Below, one piece after another: positions 36,519 through 47,893 of a DNA stretch of 47,911 nucleotides. The stretch covers positions 1-47,911 of the IMG/VR virus record IMGVR_UViG_3300031758_000132; one strand, given 5' to 3'. A program made the translations under genes and the position numbers. The notes under the pieces are model-generated. The model was not told where the DNA came from. It searched no databases and worked only from the letters and a program-made list of their open reading frames with translations. Source of the stretch: a virus. Every line of letters starts with the position of its first letter. Position 1 is the stretch's first letter.

Positions 36519-36980
36519 ATGGACGCTACAAAAGGGGTTATAGGATTTACAGCTGGTAATTTTGATTTATTACATCCAGGTTACATTTATACTTTTGAGG
36601 AAGCTAAAAGACACTGTGATTATTTTATGGTGTTTTTACAAATTGACCCATCTGAAACTAGGTTTACAAAGTATAAGCCCGTTATACCTTTGTATGAGAG
36701 GTATAAAACATTAATGGCGATCAAATATATTGACGAGGTAGTTACATACCAAACAGAAGAGGATTTGATTAAGTTAATGGAGTTTTACAAACCAGACATT
36801 AGAATCTTGGGTGATGATTATATCGGTAAAAGATTTACTGGTGACCACTTACCGATTAAAGTTATTTACACGACAAGATCTCATAATTGGTCAACAACAA
36901 AAATTAAAGATTTAATAACCATACAAACAATTAAACAAAACCCTGATATTATTAACAGAGCTGGTAAAGAAACCGAATAA
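36519..36980 (+). CDS. Cytidylyltransferase/nucleotidyltransferase-like protein (153 aa)
   Basis: The HIGH-family nucleotidyltransferase layout is clear. A glycine-rich first strand leads to FDLLHPGYIYTFEEAK with H19-P-G-Y22 in place of H-x-G-H; RYKTLMAIKYIDEVV follows; then LGDDYIGK and SHNWSTTKIKDLI, the counterpart of the ISS(T/S)-x-(L/I)-R motif. The family joins CTP or ATP to phosphorylated small molecules (glycerol-3-phosphate, ethanolamine-phosphate, sugar phosphates). The second His of HxGH is Tyr here, which may weaken or retune catalysis. Together with nearby methyltransferase and membrane genes it could serve surface or nucleotide modification. Substrate unknown. Confidence 0.8.
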   Translation: MDATKGVIGFTAGNFDLLHPGYIYTFEEAKRHCDYFMVFLQIDPSETRFTKYKPVIPLYERYKTLMAIKYIDEVVTYQTEEDLIKLMEFYKPDIRILGDDYIGKRFTGDHLPIKVIYTTRSHNWSTTKIKDLITIQTIKQNPDIINRAGKETE

Positions 36981-40197: not shown

Positions 40198-40229
40198 TTT
40201 GGTTTTTAACATTTTTGTTACTATATTTG
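40198..40229 (+). promoter_or_regulatory. Host-type (Bacteroidota) promoter for vWA gene
   Basis: TTTG at 40198-40201, 20-base spacer, TATATTTG at 40222-40229; both boxes match the Bacteroidota consensus. The expected start gives a leader of about 20 bases before the ATG at 40255. An A/T-rich run precedes the -33 box and may act as an UP-like element. Confidence 0.75.
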
Positions 40230-40254
40230 TACCCAATTTAAAATAATAAACAAT

Positions 40255-41652
40255 ATGACACGTTTAGTTGACGCTTTGAGAACAGAAAATACTACCACTG
40301 AAAATGGTATGGTAACTAACTCATCATCTTTGAATGCATGTGTTGACCTATTCTTTATGATAGGTGCAATGCGTGGCCAAGATGTTGGTAGATTGACTGC
40401 TAAATTTAGCAAGGCTTTCAACGAAAGCCCTGTGACCGCTTTGAGAATTCTTTTCTGGGCTAGAGATGCACGTTCTGGTGCTGGTGAAAGAAAAATCTTT
40501 AGAGATATCCTTAAATATCTTGCTGAGAATCATTCAGAATCTTTGGCAAAGAATATTCAGTATATCCCTGAGTTTGGTCGTTGGGATGACATGTTGTCAT
40601 TGTTTGGTACTTCTTTGGAAGGGCAAGCTAAAGGGTTAATTGAGGTTGCTTTAAACAACAACGATGGTCTTTGTGCTAAATGGATGCCAAGAAAAGGTAA
40701 ACAAGCAATTGCTTTGGAAAGACATCTTGGTTTATCCCCAAAAGAATACCGTAAATCTTTGGTAGAAAAAACCAAAGTTGTTGAGCAGTTGATGTGCGCT
40801 GGTAAGTGGTCACAAATCACTTACAACCACGTACCATCTTTGGCTATGTCAAGATACACCAAAGCGTTTGTTAAAAACGATGGTGTTAGATTTGATGAGT
40901 TCAAAAATACAGCAAAAACAATCAAGGCTGGTGCTTTGTATCCATATGACGTGTTAAAGTCATTAAAATTTGGTGGTGACAAAGTTGTGGGCGTTAAGCA
41001 GTGGGAGTCACTTCCAAACTACTTGACAAACACTGAGGAAAGAATTTTACCAGTATGTGACGTATCTGGTTCAATGTGCACACCAGCGGGTAATAACGCA
41101 AATCTTTCTTGTATGGATGTGTGTGTTTCTTTGGGATTATACATCTCTGAAAGAAATGTCGGTCCATTTAAGGACGCTTTCATCACATTCTCCTCAACAC
41201 CAAAGTTGCAATACTTAAATGGTGACATTGTTTCTAGAATGCAACAATTGGAGAGTGCTGAATGGGGTATGAGCACAGATCTTGAGGCCACTTTCAGAAT
41301 GCTTTTGGACCAAGCTGTTAAACACTCAGTTCCAAAAGAAGAAATGCCAACAACTATCTTGATTATGTCAGATATGGAGTTCAATCAAGCTACTCGTTCA
41401 AACGAAACGGCTATGAAAATGATTGAGCGTCATTACAATGAAGCTGGATACACAACCCCAAAAATTGTGTTCTGGAACATTCAAAGCAGACATGATAACG
41501 TACCAGTTAGCTTTGGTAAACATGGTGCCGCATTGGTGAGCGGATTCTCTCCAGCGATCTTAAAATCGCTTTTAGCGGGGGATGACTTCACGCCAGTTGC
41601 TATCATGAACAAAACAGTGAATAGCGAACGTTATGCTTGCATAACAGCTTAA
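40255..41652 (+). CDS. DUF2828/TROVE-like protein with C-terminal vWA domain (465 aa)
   Basis: The N-terminal about 255 residues form a helical domain with the features of DUF2828, a relative of the TROVE/Ro60 module: LRILFWARDARSGAGERK, a GRWDDMLSL helix start, and HLGLSPKEYRKSL leading to YNHVPSLAMSRYTKAF. The C-terminal vWA domain has a complete MIDAS: D269-x-S271-x-S273 in CDVSGS, T341 in GMSTDLEA and D373 in IMSDMEF. Ro60 family proteins bind Y RNAs on a helical-repeat ring and take part in RNA quality control and RNA degradation. The gene is a single transcription unit: own host-type promoter, and a structured RNA region plus strong terminator immediately 3'. RNA binding is inferred from family relation and context. 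Confidence 0.85.
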   Translation: MTRLVDALRTENTTTENGMVTNSSSLNACVDLFFMIGAMRGQDVGRLTAKFSKAFNESPVTALRILFWARDARSGAGERKIFRDILKYLAENHSESLAKNIQYIPEFGRWDDMLSLFGTSLEGQAKGLIEVALNNNDGLCAKWMPRKGKQAIALERHLGLSPKEYRKSLVEKTKVVEQLMCAGKWSQITYNHVPSLAMSRYTKAFVKNDGVRFDEFKNTAKTIKAGALYPYDVLKSLKFGGDKVVGVKQWESLPNYLTNTEERILPVCDVSGSMCTPAGNNANLSCMDVCVSLGLYISERNVGPFKDAFITFSSTPKLQYLNGDIVSRMQQLESAEWGMSTDLEATFRMLLDQAVKHSVPKEEMPTTILIMSDMEFNQATRSNETAMKMIERHYNEAGYTTPKIVFWNIQSRHDNVPVSFGKHGAALVSGFSPAILKSLLAGDDFTPVAIMNKTVNSERYACITA

Positions 41653-41658
41653 AAATAT

Positions 41659-41867
41659 TGAACGGTGGGAATACTTTCGGCAAGTTTTACAAATATACAA
41701 CTAAGCCAGAAAAAACCCCACTATAAGGTGTAAAGTGGGTACTAAACCGTGGGTCGAGAGACGCTTCGGCTATGTCTAGCACTATGTTACGGGGGCATAA
41801 AAACCCGAGACCTGATTCCGATACCGTTCATGACTTTAAAAGGTGGAAAAATTTTCCACCTTTTTTT
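41659..41867 (+). ncRNA. Candidate structured RNA downstream of the vWA/DUF2828 gene, Y-RNA-like closing helix
   Basis: The 172-base region 41659-41830 has pairing ends: TGAACGGT (41659-41666) with ACCGTTCA (41823-41830), then after an asymmetric internal loop (G against GAT) GGAAT (41668-41672) with ATTCC (41815-41819). Inside are hairpins CCCACT/AGTGGG (41717-41722 with 41734-41739), GGC-x-AGTT/AACT-xx-GCC (41679-41707), and AGACGC-TTCG-GC-bulge-GTCT (41759-41777), plus CCGT/ACGG (41747-41750 with 41789-41792). Bases 41741-41830 are about half G+C (46 of 90) in a roughly one-third G+C genome. No ORF of note is present. It could be a processed 3'-UTR RNA bound by the vWA protein or a stabilising 3' structure. 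Internal pairings have alternatives (for example GCTA/TAGC at 41769-41780). Confidence 0.65.
41839..41867 (+). terminator. Strong Rho-independent terminator
   Basis: AAAGGTGGAAA pairs with TTTCCACCTTT in a tight hairpin followed by seven T residues. It ends the vWA gene and RNA unit nine bases after the closing helix of the RNA. Confidence 0.92.
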
Positions 41868-43617: not shown

Positions 43618-44286
43618 ATGAATTTAGGAAAAGAGTTTAATCAGTACGCTACAAAGCACATGGGAATTAAGTCTGAAACACTTAGCAGATTTAACAGTTC
43701 AATAACCCCTTATATTATTGAAGAAAGAGAAATGAACGTTACACAAATGGACGTATTCTCAAGATTGATGATGGAGAGGGTTATTTTCTTGGGTACTGGT
43801 ATTAACGATCAAGTATCTAACATTATTCAAGCACAATTACTTTTCTTGGAATCAATTGACAAAGAAGCTGGTATTCAGATCTACATCAACTCTCCAGGGG
43901 GTTCTGTTTATTCTGGTTTGGGTATCTACGACACAATGCAATACATTAAACCAGAAGTATCGACAATTTGCACAGGATTGGCGGCATCAATGGCCGCTGT
44001 ATTACTCTGCGCTGGCGCTGAAGGTAAACGTTACGCATTACCACATTCAAGGGTTATGATTCACCAACCATTGGGTGGTGCCGAAGGCCAAGCAACTGAT
44101 ATCGAGATCACAGCAAGAGAGATTGGTAAATTGAAGAAAGAATTGTACGATATCATTTCTCACCACACTGGTCAAACCTATGATAAAGTGTACGCTGATT
44201 CTGAGAGAGATTACTGGATGAGAGCTGATGAAGCTAAGGAATACGGGATGATCGACTCGGTAATGAATCGAAAACCAAAGAAATAA
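43618..44286 (+). CDS. clpP: ClpP-type serine protease (222 aa)
   Basis: The ClpP fold and catalytic triad are clear: INSPGGSVYSGLGIYD (oxyanion region), S124 in GLAASMAAVL, H149 in SRVMIHQPLGG (25 residues after Ser, as in E. coli ClpP), and D194 in the YADSERDYWM segment; the C-terminal EAKEYGMIDSVM matches the usual ending. Length is normal for ClpP. It is probably a functional protease barrel that needs a ClpX/ClpA-type partner, host or phage. In phages S14 proteases may instead act as prohead proteases, but this one looks like cellular ClpP and stands next to tail-fibre genes, not capsid genes. It is a single-gene unit with host-type promoter and a terminator. Confidence 0.93.
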   Translation: MNLGKEFNQYATKHMGIKSETLSRFNSSITPYIIEEREMNVTQMDVFSRLMMERVIFLGTGINDQVSNIIQAQLLFLESIDKEAGIQIYINSPGGSVYSGLGIYDTMQYIKPEVSTICTGLAASMAAVLLCAGAEGKRYALPHSRVMIHQPLGGAEGQATDIEITAREIGKLKKELYDIISHHTGQTYDKVYADSERDYWMRADEAKEYGMIDSVMNRKPKK

Positions 44287-44350: not shown

Positions 44351-45553
44351 ATGGCATATCAATGGTTAGGAGAGTGGTTAGGTGGTGCAGGTTCCAGTAC
44401 AGTTACCTACGACCAAGACAATCACGTTACATATAATGGAATTTATTATATCTGTTTAAATTATAGACCAGTAGGTTCACCGTCTCCAGACATGGATACA
44501 TCTAATTGGGATGTAATCCTTAGAGATGGAAATGCTGGTACTTCTGGTTTATCTGGTACATCAGGGATATCTGGTACATCAGGGTTAAGTGGAACTTTTG
44601 GTTCTTCAGGCAGTTCAGGTACTTCTGGATCATCAGGTAATACAGGATCATCAGGTTCTGCTGGTACATCAGGTACATCGGGTGTAAAAGGTACATCAGG
44701 AACAAGTGGTTCATCTGGCTCATCTGGAAGCACACCAGCATACGTTTTAAATTATGCACAAGCTGGTGGCGGTGCTAGAGTCACATTAGGTGCAAGTGGA
44801 TCGGCACAAAATATTGTAAGTGTTTCGATCACAACAACAGGTAGTCCAGTTAAAGTGACAGCCTATGGTGATGCTGAAAATGCTGGTGCTGGTTATTGGT
44901 CTAAATTACAATTATATAGAGGTTCAACAGCTTTAGGCGCAATTGTTCACACTGAAGGTAGTGGTGGAAGTGAAAATTCGCCATTTGCGCTTTCTTATAT
45001 TGATAACCCATCTGCTGGTACATACACATATTATTTAAAAGCTGTTGAAATCAGTGGTGGTAATATTAGTTTTGGTGAATCAACGGCACCAACAATAAAT
45101 GTACAGGAATTAAATGGCCCTGGTTCTTCAGGTTCAGCTGGTTCTTCTGGAACATCTGGTGATGCTGGTTCTTCTGGAACATCTGGTGACGGTGGTGTTA
45201 AATACGCATCTGGTTTTGTAAACGCTGGAACATATGTAACACTGGATAATATTAAAGCAACATTAACAGGTTCAGGTAATCGTGGTTTAAGTGTGGCAAC
45301 ATTATCGGGTTCATATGGTTGTTTTGTTGGTGCCCATTATTTCCTAACTAACAATAGTATGGGTGGGAGCGCTGGTGCGTTATCAATAACGACAACACCT
45401 AGTAGTTCAGTGTTTGGTTGGAACTTTACTGGGGCTGGCGATACATCAATATACATTATTACCGATGATGCGACCAATATAGCATATCGTATTACATTAC
45501 AAGTAGGTAGTACTTATCTTAATAACTTTATATCGATTGAAAGGTTATTATAA
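44351..45553 (+). CDS. Collagen-like tail fibre or surface protein (400 aa)
   Basis: Residues 1-55 form a CBM5/12-like module: aromatic residues with YDQDNHVTYNGIYYICL and a final SNWDVILRDG. Residues about 60-125 are Gly-X-Y triplets dominated by Ser and Thr (GTSGSSG), i.e. a collagen-like stalk. A beta-sandwich domain follows (about 135-255), then a second short GSS/GTS stalk (258-280), and a C-terminal beta domain (280-400). The layout fits a trimeric fibre or appendage. Codon-level repeats of GGTTCTTC/TCAGG type are present. It has its own TATTTATA element; the next fibre gene lies 117 bases downstream. Confidence 0.8.
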   Translation: MAYQWLGEWLGGAGSSTVTYDQDNHVTYNGIYYICLNYRPVGSPSPDMDTSNWDVILRDGNAGTSGLSGTSGISGTSGLSGTFGSSGSSGTSGSSGNTGSSGSAGTSGTSGVKGTSGTSGSSGSSGSTPAYVLNYAQAGGGARVTLGASGSAQNIVSVSITTTGSPVKVTAYGDAENAGAGYWSKLQLYRGSTALGAIVHTEGSGGSENSPFALSYIDNPSAGTYTYYLKAVEISGGNISFGESTAPTINVQELNGPGSSGSAGSSGTSGDAGSSGTSGDGGVKYASGFVNAGTYVTLDNIKATLTGSGNRGLSVATLSGSYGCFVGAHYFLTNNSMGGSAGALSITTTPSSSVFGWNFTGAGDTSIYIITDDATNIAYRITLQVGSTYLNNFISIERLL

Positions 45554-45670: not shown

Positions 45671-47893
45671 ATGTCAAATTTAGTATTAAGAGCAAATCTA
45701 TCCAGACCATTAACACATAATGAGTTGGATGCGAATATGCAGTTCCTTGAGATTGTCGAATGGTCGGCAAAAGACTTCAGGGCTGATCAGTTTGCATACG
45801 TAACTGTAACTGGGACAACAACATTATATTTGTGCCTTGAAACGCACACTGCGTTTGTCTATGATAATAATGGTGGTAATTTTGCTGAAACAATAACTGT
45901 TGATGGCACACCTATTACTCTTTGGAGAAAAATCTCTGGAAGCGGTGGTGGAACTGGCGCTGAATTCGTTAATGCTACTTTTGATAGCGGTACAAATATT
46001 ATAACCTTTACAGCTGCTGATGGTAGCACAGTTGACGTTGATTTAAGCTCAATAGCTGGTGGTGGTACTGGAACTTCGGGGACATCTGGTAACTCAGGAA
46101 CAAGTGGTATCACTGGTTCTTCAGGGTCATCAGGTTCTTCAGGGGAATCTGGTACATCTGGTATCACTGGATCTTCAGGATCTGCTGGTTCTTCAGGAAC
46201 ATCAGGTGTTGGTTCACCTGGATCTTCAGGATCTGCTGGTTCTTCAGGTTTTACTGGTACAAGCGGTGTAAGTGGTTCTTCAGGTTCATCAGGTGAAACA
46301 GGGACAAGTGGTGCCAATGGTGATTTATATAAAACAACATCCTCAACACCATTTACATTAGGTAGTCCTGGTGCGATAACAGTTGCAACAGGTTTAGCTT
46401 ATACAGTTGCACAATCAATTATAATTGCTTATGATATAAGTAATTACCAAGAATGTGAGGTTATAAACTATGATGGTGCCACAGGTATTTTAACATTTGG
46501 TACCCCAACAAGAGTTGTTGGCAGTGGTTTACATAGTAGCTGGGTTGTTAACTTGGATGGTGCTTCTGGTGGTGACGGTACATCTGGATCCGCTGGTTCT
46601 TCAGGATCCGCTGGTTCTTCAGGAACAAGTGGTAACACTGGGTCATCAGGTTCTTCAGGATCCGCTGGTTCTTCAGGAACAAGTGGTGGGCCAGGAACAT
46701 CTGGTACGAGTGGCGGACCTGGTACATCAGGAACGTCTGGTTATAGTGACAAATATTTAGGTTTATCTTCAACACCAGTTGATTATTCAACATTGGCTGT
46801 CGGTGTACCATTAATTGTAACAACATTAACAAATTTATCATACTCAACGGGTCAATCCGTTATTATAGCATATGATAATTTAAATTATGCTAATGGTACT
46901 GTAATAACCTATAACGCTGGTACGGGTCAATTATCGATTGACGTAACCAGTTTTGCTTTTTCATCATCTGGGCCACAAAACCCATCAACAACAAATTTAC
47001 AAGGAACAATTGGTGCAACAGGTTCATCAGGATCTGCTGGTTCTTCAGGGGAAGCTGGTTCATCAGGATCTGCTGGTTCTTCAGGGGAAGCTGGTTCTTC
47101 AGGTACATCTGGTATTGGTTCACCTGGTTCTTCAGGTACATCTGGTATTGGTTCACCTGGTTCTTCAGGTACATCTGGTATTGGTTCACCTGGTTCTTCA
47201 GGGTCAGCTGGATCTTCTGGCGAATCTGGTGTAGCTGGTACAAGCGGTACATCATCAGCTGGCGGTGGCACATCAACAGTTTATAACAATGTATCCAGAT
47301 ATTTAGCATATAATAGTGGTTCAGCAAACATATACATTGTCTCAAGTGCGACAGTTAATACTGGTTTATCTTGGAGTAGAAGTGGTTCAACTGTAACCGT
47401 AACACATAATAATCATGGTAGGAGTAATGGTGATGCTGTCATCATTAGAAATGTTAATATTGATAATGAATATTGCGTTGTTAGTAACGTTTCAACAAAC
47501 ACATTTGATATCACCGTTTCATCAAGTTCAGGTACATCTTCAGGGTCAGCTGCGGCATATTCATTAGGTTTTACAGTCTCATCTGTTTCAGCCGCTGGCG
47601 CTACGATTGTTGCCCCATCTGGTGGTGATGTTCAGTTGATGAGTTATTACCACGCAACTGGTTCAAGATCGGGTACAACATATGCATTAACAACACCAAT
47701 ATCAGCTACAAACGGTGGTGGTGCAAATAGTGCAACTAATAACGCATATTTCCCAATAATAAGGGTTCAAGATGTTGTTGCTGGTACTATTGTGGGTGCC
47801 TCAATTACATTAGCTACGGCTAGTAATTACCATGTGTTTAATTTAGGTTCATTAGGTGCATCAAACTCCAATGGAATAAGAATGGTTTTTTAA
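45671..47893 (+). CDS. Collagen-like tail fibre (740 aa)
   Basis: The N-terminal about 45 residues contain SRPLTHNELDANMQFLEI, the 'pLT..E.DaNf..L' element often found at the base-attachment end of fibres. Then comes a beta segment, and a collagen-like stalk (about 135-215) of Gly-Ser/Thr-Ser triplets. Two similar beta domains follow at about 217-298 and 357-448, sharing SIIIAYD/SVIIAYD and an NY..xxVI.Y...TG.L pattern, separated by a second stalk. A third stalk (about 450-530) is built from exact DNA repeats, and a C-terminal head domain (about 540-740) probably binds the host. It ends 14 bases before the ATG of a gene leaving the window. Confidence 0.85.
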   Translation: MSNLVLRANLSRPLTHNELDANMQFLEIVEWSAKDFRADQFAYVTVTGTTTLYLCLETHTAFVYDNNGGNFAETITVDGTPITLWRKISGSGGGTGAEFVNATFDSGTNIITFTAADGSTVDVDLSSIAGGGTGTSGTSGNSGTSGITGSSGSSGSSGESGTSGITGSSGSAGSSGTSGVGSPGSSGSAGSSGFTGTSGVSGSSGSSGETGTSGANGDLYKTTSSTPFTLGSPGAITVATGLAYTVAQSIIIAYDISNYQECEVINYDGATGILTFGTPTRVVGSGLHSSWVVNLDGASGGDGTSGSAGSSGSAGSSGTSGNTGSSGSSGSAGSSGTSGGPGTSGTSGGPGTSGTSGYSDKYLGLSSTPVDYSTLAVGVPLIVTTLTNLSYSTGQSVIIAYDNLNYANGTVITYNAGTGQLSIDVTSFAFSSSGPQNPSTTNLQGTIGATGSSGSAGSSGEAGSSGSAGSSGEAGSSGTSGIGSPGSSGTSGIGSPGSSGTSGIGSPGSSGSAGSSGESGVAGTSGTSSAGGGTSTVYNNVSRYLAYNSGSANIYIVSSATVNTGLSWSRSGSTVTVTHNNHGRSNGDAVIIRNVNIDNEYCVVSNVSTNTFDITVSSSSGTSSGSAAAYSLGFTVSSVSAAGATIVAPSGGDVQLMSYYHATGSRSGTTYALTTPISATNGGGANSATNNAYFPIIRVQDVVAGTIVGASITLATASNYHVFNLGSLGASNSNGIRMVF
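47021..47191 (+). repeat. Tandem 36-base (x2) and 33-base (x3) repeats in fibre stalk
   Basis: A 36-base unit encoding GSSGSAGSSGEA occupies 47021-47056 and is repeated exactly at 47057-47092. A 33-base unit encoding GSSGTSGIGSP occupies 47093-47125, 47126-47158 and 47159-47191, all exact. Whole-codon units mean that slippage changes stalk length without frameshift. Confidence 0.95.

What the first reader, a model, noticed from the sequence alone, without database searches (positions are those of the whole stretch)
40198..41867. Phage Ro60-like unit: DUF2828/vWA protein with a downstream structured RNA
Seen: a promoter-gene-RNA-terminator unit in which a helical-domain plus vWA protein with complete MIDAS is followed, seven bases after its stop, by a 172-base GC-rich segment whose ends pair (8 bp + 5 bp around an internal loop) and that is closed by a terminator. 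Known: TROVE/Ro60 proteins bind Y RNAs, whose ends pair in a helix with a bulge, and Y-like RNAs are often encoded beside the protein gene, including in some phages. Inferred: this is a DUF2828-type ribonucleoprotein of a Bacteroidota phage with its own RNA cofactor, perhaps for steering RNases or guarding phage RNA. The pairing of DUF2828 with an RNA would be new to my knowledge.
Basis: partly seen in the sequence, partly recalled or inferred. Interest (0 to 1): 0.92.

Follow-up and report, generated by a model that had tools for sequence, protein, structure and literature searches.

The report
Phage Ro-like protein with Y-like RNAs
A phage gene for a Ro60-shaped protein is followed by a structured RNA that evolution has kept, and relatives of this gene in many phages and bacterial genomes sit near small RNAs that share one signature and often imitate parts of transfer RNA.

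Summary
Window 40255-41652 encodes a DUF2828/DUF7788 vWA protein with an intact MIDAS. Its AlphaFold model matches Ro60/TROVE over most of its length, although the TROVE sequence profile does not match. The 172-nt segment behind it (41659-41830) is a real RNA structure: in seven related RNAs, the window's included, the closing helix (9 bp, GA bulge, 5 bp) pairs in 98 of 98 cells, with double changes at 8 of 14 pairs.

The finding is wider than the window. Around DUF2828 genes (158 non-redundant loci) the hexamer CAGCAA, directly 3' of a helix strand, is the most over-represented of 4096 (143 seen, 20 expected; not so in controls). It marks RNAs of about 55-240 nt, single or in arrays of up to eight. 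Many carry tRNA parts: anticodon-type arms, T arms, permuted tRNA cores with a capped acceptor stem. In a few cases the module sits in the anticodon loop of an otherwise intact tRNA. In the window and 37 loci scanned, Rfam offered only generic tRNA for them.

The window RNA belongs to a large subclass without tRNA parts. I read this as a Ro/Y-RNA-like ribonucleoprotein with its own binding module. Binding and function are inferred.

The parts
40198..40229 (+). Promoter-like TTTG - 20 nt - TATATTTG upstream of the gene (Bacteroidota type, consensus recalled)
   Evidence: read from sequence
40255..41652 (+). DUF2828/DUF7788 protein, 465 aa: helical N part (about 27-251) plus vWA domain (about 264-455) with intact MIDAS; Ro60-like fold
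41659..41830 (+). Structured RNA, 172 nt, window-type (large) member of the DUF2828-linked RNAs
41659..41672 (+). 5' strand of the closing helix (9 bp outer, then 5 bp inner GGAAU)
41678..41684 (+). CGGCAAG, at the position of the CAGCAA signature; homologues L003, L004, L005, L052 and G050 have CAGCAA here, L001 and L053 have CGGCAAG
41815..41830 (+). 3' strand of the closing helix: AUUCC, conserved bulge GA (41820-41821), then UACCGUUCA
41838..41864 (+). Terminator-like hairpin closing the gene-RNA unit

Best explanation
The unit encodes a Ro60-like ribonucleoprotein: a DUF2828 protein and a partner RNA made from the same transcript. The RNA has two parts. A constant module, the terminal helix that leads 5' to 3' into a single-stranded CAGCAA-type segment, is what the protein most likely grips (inferred from its conservation in linked RNAs of otherwise unlike shape). 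A variable part projects from it. In many relatives the variable part imitates tRNA (anticodon-type arm, T arm, or permuted tRNA core with a capped acceptor stem). I think the complex presents these parts to enzymes that act on tRNA or structured RNA, either as decoys against tRNA-cleaving host defences or as handles that recruit a nuclease or modifying enzyme, as bacterial YrlA is said to do (recalled). Shown here: RNA structure by covariation, linkage of RNA and gene, presence of tRNA parts in relatives. Predicted: the protein fold. Inferred: binding, release of the RNA from the mRNA 3' end, and function.
For: Covarying helix in 7 window-type RNAs. CAGCAA after a strong helix strand: 143 of 397 against 20.1 expected near DUF2828 genes; 5 of 163 (8.2 expected) on the antisense strand; 23 of 573 (26.5 expected) in 77 other loci, one of which, L213, turned out to carry the RNAs and gives one of the 23. 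Covariance model R1 hits 20 of 21 whole DUF2828 phage records at E<=0.05; of the 12 with no member in its training set 11 hit, each with best E<=8.5e-5. It hits 10 of 10 IMG/VR DUF2828 records (3 had training members; the weakest, L061's, only at E 0.02), including a 206-kb record with the window's protein and RNA. It hits 0 of 4 known phages in which DUF2828 did not ring and 3 of 50 control contigs, one of which carries DUF2828. In one 4-Mb genome its two hits sit beside the two DUF2828 genes. tRNA parts: YUNNNRN 7-nt hairpin loops 47 against 1.8 expected (genome contigs) and 9 against 0.7 (viral); of 236 elements 12 hold a T arm followed by a capped 6-7-bp stem and 20 a T arm with a 7-nt-loop hairpin before it. 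Fold: Z 13.5-17.8 over 340-388 residues for ten Ro60/TROVE entries, best other row 11.7 over 166.
Against: No expression or binding data. R1 does not find the window RNA; its link to the family rests on homologues and position. No T arm in 8 of 8 window-type RNAs, and no tRNA-type loop outside the closing helix. In several phages the RNAs lie far from the gene (KVP40 about 7 kb, Erwinia SNUABM_44 about 150 kb or more). Vibrio phage D480 has no hit; 2 of 8 bacterial genomes have none (candidates capped). 47 of 158 loci show no element even at a lax score. Two control contigs without a DUF2828 match also hit R1 (E 2e-4 and 0.02). Hairpins with 4-6 and 8-9-nt loops are also in excess, mostly about twofold, so part of the hairpin excess is general.
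Confidence: 0.72

Rival explanations
1. The structure is only a 3' untranslated element: it stabilises the mRNA or helps termination and never exists as a separate RNA partner.
For: It lies between the stop codon and a terminator-like hairpin, and no promoter of its own was noticed.
Against: CAGCAA-module RNAs of relatives also occur upstream of the gene, in tRNA clusters far from it and inside tRNA genes, where a 3'UTR role makes no sense.
Confidence: 0.15
2. Autoregulatory site: the protein binds the module in its own mRNA and tunes its synthesis, with no further role for the RNA.
For: Elements crowd within about 1 kb of the gene, mostly upstream.
Against: Up to eight copies per locus, many with tRNA parts, and copies in distant tRNA clusters.
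Confidence: 0.1
3. The RNAs serve tRNA gene clusters: the protein binds the module as a chaperone or processing factor for phage tRNAs.
For: Some copies lie among tRNA genes, for example right before tRNA-Phe in the 206-kb contig that shares the window's protein and RNA, and 8 of 14 tRNAs with long inserts carry the motif.
Against: The window-type RNAs sit right behind the gene, and the window holds no tRNA.
Confidence: 0.2
4. Chance hairpin in GC-richer spacer.
For: Fold z only -2.1; 22 placements of this helix shape in the window.
Against: 98 of 98 paired cells with 20 double changes over 7 related RNAs.
Confidence: 0.02

Closest known systems
Bacterial Ro60 (Rsr) with YrlA / Y RNA (TROVE PF05731, Rfam RF02553)
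   Same: Predicted fold of the protein; RNA with paired ends beside the gene; in part of the DUF2828 RNAs the same permuted tRNA layout (anticodon-like arm, T arm, capped acceptor, D-arm stretch) that sub-threshold YrlA matches beside TROVE genes show.
   Different: Protein hits DUF2828/DUF7788, not TROVE. The four YrlA-like sequences viewed beside TROVE genes have no CAGCAA. No YrlA match at gathering score in the window or in the 37 loci scanned. The window RNA has no T arm.
Trove domain and Thermus phage phiLo Ro60 structures (PDB 9kop, 9l5y)
   Same: Top structural matches of the model by Foldseek; phiLo is a phage too.
   Different: 15-16% identity; a profile of the window family reaches them by sequence only at E 0.016, over 41 residues of the vWA part.
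phrog_850; 'Ro-like RNA binding protein' of mycobacteriophages and 'RNA-binding protein' of RefSeq phages
   Same: Same family: phrog_850 E 5e-147; 681 of 50,697 phage records have a homologue.
   Different: In the 7-9-kb stretches shown for 21 records (one without annotation) no partner RNA is named; in S13 and Ci1 module-bearing RNAs are listed as tRNA-Ser or other/pseudo tRNA.

Membership tests
DUF2828 (PF11443) / phrog_850 | Profile match over the protein | tested here: met
   6.6e-34 and 5.3e-147 over residues 9-461
Ro60 / TROVE (PF05731) | TROVE profile match | tested here: not met
   no TROVE among Pfam hits at E<=1 (HMMER drops most matches above about 0.1)
Ro60 / TROVE (PF05731) | Helical ring domain joined to a vWA domain | tested here: met
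   by prediction only: AlphaFold model pLDDT 78, pTM 0.70; Ro60/TROVE chains top both structure comparisons
Ro60 / TROVE (PF05731) | Intact MIDAS in the vWA domain | tested here: met
   D269, S271, S273, T341, D373 identical in 16 of 16
Ro60 / TROVE (PF05731) | Binds a Y RNA | not testable with these tools
   only linkage and conservation shown
YrlA / bacterial Y RNA (RF02553) | Covariance model match at gathering score | tested here: not met
   window: 0 matches of any family; 37 loci: no YrlA
YrlA / bacterial Y RNA (RF02553) | Ends pair in a helix with a bulge | tested here: met
   9 bp, GA bulge, 5 bp, covarying
YrlA / bacterial Y RNA (RF02553) | tRNA-like domain in the RNA | tested here: not met
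   no T arm in 8 of 8 window-type RNAs, no tRNA in the window; T arm with capped stem in 12 of 236 elements of other DUF2828 loci

The most novel reading that the evidence does not exclude
DUF2828 proteins and CAGCAA-module RNAs form a second Ro/Y-RNA-like system, spread across phages and bacterial genomes. Its protein-binding module is a portable cassette: it caps short RNAs, permuted tRNAs and tRNA-like cores and has been inserted into the anticodon loops of intact tRNAs. Through it phages display sets of tRNA mimics with different anticodons as decoys or baits for host enzymes that cut or modify tRNA.
Probability: 0.35. Interest if true: 0.93.

Novelty: new variant of a known kind. Interest (0 to 1): 0.84.

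Why it matters
DUF2828 proteins are common in phages, and I found no named partner for them. A simple sequence signature now names candidate partner RNAs in phages of Listeria, Staphylococcus, Mycobacterium, Campylobacter, Salmonella and others, some of which are easy to grow. The tRNA parts in these RNAs make a testable link to the contest over tRNA between phages and hosts, and the permuted and tRNA-embedded forms are an unusual case of RNA modules being rearranged in evolution.

Tried and rejected
Rejected: chance hairpin (against it). Known Rfam family: at gathering score only generic tRNA, plus one tmRNA (L125) and one SAM riboswitch (L207) away from the elements; below threshold only scattered weak matches. 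Known anti-phage defence protein: no PADLOC match; no NCBIfam match.

Led nowhere: the DNA search of the RNA in the phage collection gave 282 records with short matches only, none covering 80% of the query. The pattern GGGAATANTTNCRGCAA was too loose: of 119 stretches I recognised as window-type only those in the contigs of L001, L002, L004, L052 and the new record G050. TROVE flanks (6 loci, +-1.5 kb) showed no consistent CAGCAA element, too few to conclude. R1 misses the window RNA.

Papers: ten searches (DUF2828; Ro60 with phage and Y RNA; Ro-like RNA binding protein; noncoding RNA with vWA and Ro; YrlA; Ro60 with phiLo; TROVE domain with phage; anticodon nuclease with decoy; bacterial Y RNA; ACAGCAA) listed no title on RNAs beside DUF2828; two searches listed 20 of 39 and 15 of 166 papers. 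I read passages of PMC7824862, PMC7765460, PMC6333295 and PMC11208441 only. Two Y RNA papers I looked up are not held, so this is no proof of absence from print; what is said of YrlA's partners is recalled.

Caveats: alignment A3 and model R1 were made from elements picked for complementarity, so the pair counts are biased; the test without that bias is the hexamer test. Its threshold is the top 5% of helix scores of the same loci. 49 of 207 loci were dropped as redundant or too short before it. L053 was left out of the helix count because its helix pairs in another register. In that count window and L001 share the same helix letters, and L005 and G050 are close relatives. Of the 50 control records, G050 had been fetched by the window-type pattern, so its hit is not blind.

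Full report
What is in the window. The ORF at 40255-41652 encodes 465 aa with Pfam DUF2828 and DUF7788 matches and no TROVE match. PHROG files it under phrog_850, RNA-binding protein. In an alignment of 16 homologues the MIDAS residues D269, S271, S273, T341 and D373 never vary. AlphaFold gives pLDDT 78 and pTM 0.70. The best solved matches are the Trove domain 9kop, phage phiLo Ro60 9l5y and Ro60 with RNA 2i91; VIA-align gives Z 13.5-17.8 over 340-388 residues for ten Ro60/TROVE entries, at 4.0-6.7 A, and the best other row is a vWA-only match at 11.7. By sequence the family profile reaches these structures only at E 0.016, over 41 residues of the vWA part. So the predicted fold is Ro60-like and membership in TROVE is not shown.

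The RNA. From 41659 to 41830 the ends pair: 9 bp, a two-base GA bulge on the 3' strand, and 5 bp, followed by a terminator-like hairpin at 41838-41864. The gene has a promoter-like pair upstream and the next gene has its own. By folding energy alone the case is modest (z -2.13), and helices of the same shape can be placed 22 times in the window, this one included. The proof is in the homologues. L001-L005, L052 and record G050 carry the same element right behind the DUF2828 gene, and L053 (with L055, the same there) a version in a shifted register. On the seven that align (window, L001, L003, L004, L005, L052, G050) all 98 cells pair, 8 of 14 pairs have changes on both sides, and the covariation score is 0.633 against 0.262 for shuffles and at most 0.104 for slid pairings. 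The inner GGAAU/AUUCC and the GA are invariant; the segment that follows the 5' strand reads CAGCAA in five of the seven and CGGCAAG in the window and L001.

The signature is general. In 158 non-redundant DUF2828 loci (82 viral, 76 from genome contigs; 49 of 207 dropped), I asked of all 4096 hexamers which are over-represented directly 3' of a strong helix strand within 2 kb of the gene. CAGCAA is first: 143 of 397 occurrences against 20.2 expected, log10 p -79, in 72 loci; it is also first in the viral and the genome-contig subsets separately. The antisense strand of the same flanks gives 5 of 163 (8.2 expected); 77 other IMG/VR loci, both strands, give 23 of 573 (26.5 expected), one of the 23 from L213, which belongs to the DUF2828 record G050. 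The signal fades with distance from the gene. At a laxer score 111 of 158 loci show an element, chance matches included.

Whole records. A covariance model R1 of 56 short forms hits 20 of 21 complete DUF2828 phage records at E<=0.05; 12 of the 21 had no sequence in the training set and 11 of those hit, each with best E<=8.5e-5; Vibrio phage D480 does not. It hits 10 of 10 IMG/VR DUF2828 records, three of which had training members; the weakest is at E 0.02. It hits 6 of 8 bacterial genomes, with at most 150 candidates scored per genome. In G053 (Succinimonas) its two hits lie beside the two DUF2828 genes, one of which was unknown to me beforehand. It hits 3 of 50 control contigs: G050, which carries DUF2828 and had been fetched by the window-type pattern, and two weaker ones without a DUF2828 match. 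It hits none of T4, phiKZ, SPO1 and 201phi2-1, in which PF11443 did not ring either; the tool warns that such empty answers are weak. A 206-kb contig with the window's protein and RNA (L015), taken as the same phage, has a near-canonical short RNA (UUACAGCAC) in a tRNA cluster about 18-19 kb downstream of the gene, right before tRNA-Phe. The RNAs are not always beside the gene: KVP40's hit is about 7 kb away and a cluster of four in the Erwinia phage is about 150 kb or more away.

Architectures. Of 236 elements with a strong stem: 103 short (loop span up to 62), 70 longer without tRNA signs, 23 with an anticodon-type hairpin only, 20 with a T arm and a 7-nt-loop hairpin before it, 12 with a T arm followed by a 6-7-bp stem capped by a loop, 8 with a T arm only. 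The 12 are permuted tRNA cores: in all but L176 a D-arm-like stretch follows by eye. Hairpins with 7-nt loops are in large excess (119 against 24.6 in genome contigs; 29 against 10.2 in viral), as are loops of the form YUNNNRN (47 against 1.8; 9 against 0.7); 16 of the 47 and 5 of the 9 have the T-loop triplet, the rest are anticodon-like with many different triplets; other loop sizes are mostly about twofold in excess. Independently, ARAGORN finds 14 distinct tRNAs with inserts of 25-120 nt in the DUF2828 loci; 8 carry [AT]CAGCA. The call counts ACAGCA in 7 against 0.44 expected, but one of the 7 (L030 6024) takes it from a neighbouring element, so 6 are its own. In them the motif follows the 3' half of a hairpin (read by eye). 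Two are in Cronobacter phage S13, one in Aeromonas phage LAh_6 and one in Citrobacter phage Ci1; Rfam accepts these four as tRNA, and in S13 they are annotated as tRNA-Ser and tRNA-OTHER. Relative to the other forms the module is circularly permuted there.

Comparison with YrlA. Sub-threshold RF02553 matches beside TROVE genes (L339, L340, L342, L349) show a different end stem, an anticodon-like arm, T arm, capped acceptor and D arm in the clearer cases, and no CAGCAA. RF02553 also rings below threshold in control genomes, so these matches alone prove little. The permuted DUF2828 RNAs share this tRNA layout but not the end module. I therefore take the DUF2828 RNAs as working like Y RNAs, and do not file the window RNA as one: it fails the Rfam model and has no T arm.

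Mechanism. Shown: RNA structure, conservation, linkage, tRNA parts in relatives. Inferred: that the constant module binds the protein and the variable part meets another partner. The many different anticodon-type arms beside a Ro-like platform suggest decoys or baits for enzymes that act on tRNA; recruitment of a nuclease, as told of YrlA with Rsr and PNPase (recalled), is equally open. For the window RNA itself, without a tRNA part, I can only say scaffold or tether.

Known. Phage 'Ro-like RNA binding protein' names are common. Passages of a jumbo-phage review mention a TROVE protein and its tRNA-like partner in cells (PMC7824862); passages of a Vibrio jumbo-phage paper mention a Ro60-related protein and say that several phages are reported to have YrlA (PMC7765460). 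So Ro/Y-RNA pairs in phages are an existing idea; whether those cases include DUF2828 I could not see. One passage on archaeal tRNA clusters reports a TROVE gene in 20 of 29 clusters (PMC6333295), which echoes the tRNA link. My searches of the held library listed no paper on RNAs beside DUF2828 genes, but two Y RNA papers I looked up are not held.

Noticed in passing
window 43618-44286: ClpP-type protease gene (Pfam CLP_protease 1.1e-78), two genes after the DUF2828 gene.
   Followed up: no
window 44351-45553 and 45671-47893: Two proteins rich in GSSGTSG-type collagen-like repeats, probably virion fibres (by eye).
   Followed up: no
window 36519-36980: Small protein with a GNFDLLHPGY start that looks like a cytidylyltransferase (by eye).
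   Followed up: no
L031 1497-1613, L030 5895-6015 and 6025-6137, L033 4891-5005, L036 5945-6058, L165 4396-4509 and 5173-5286, L198 1973-2165: tRNAs with a hairpin plus CAGCA-type module inserted, by ARAGORN or Rfam, in the anticodon region; they could hardly decode in this form.
   Followed up: partly
L178, L181, L199, L162, L158, L207 upstream of the DUF2828 gene: Arrays of five to eight module-bearing RNAs per locus, several with tRNA-like cores.
   Followed up: partly
L134 and L135 (Chloroflexi contigs): DUF2828 gene inside dense clusters of more than 20 tRNA genes.
   Followed up: no
L068, L091, L093, L112, L119, L120, L016, L022 beside the gene: Further large RNAs (about 170-245 nt) with the CAGCAA module and no tRNA sign, possibly more subclasses like the window's.
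   Followed up: no
L003, L004, L052 window-type RNAs: A hairpin with varying stem and 7-nt loop RCUUUAA, which recalls a lysine anticodon loop but has C at position 33.
   Followed up: no
L125 5793-6285: A tmRNA gene (Rfam 80 bits) near the DUF2828 gene of a viral contig.
   Followed up: no
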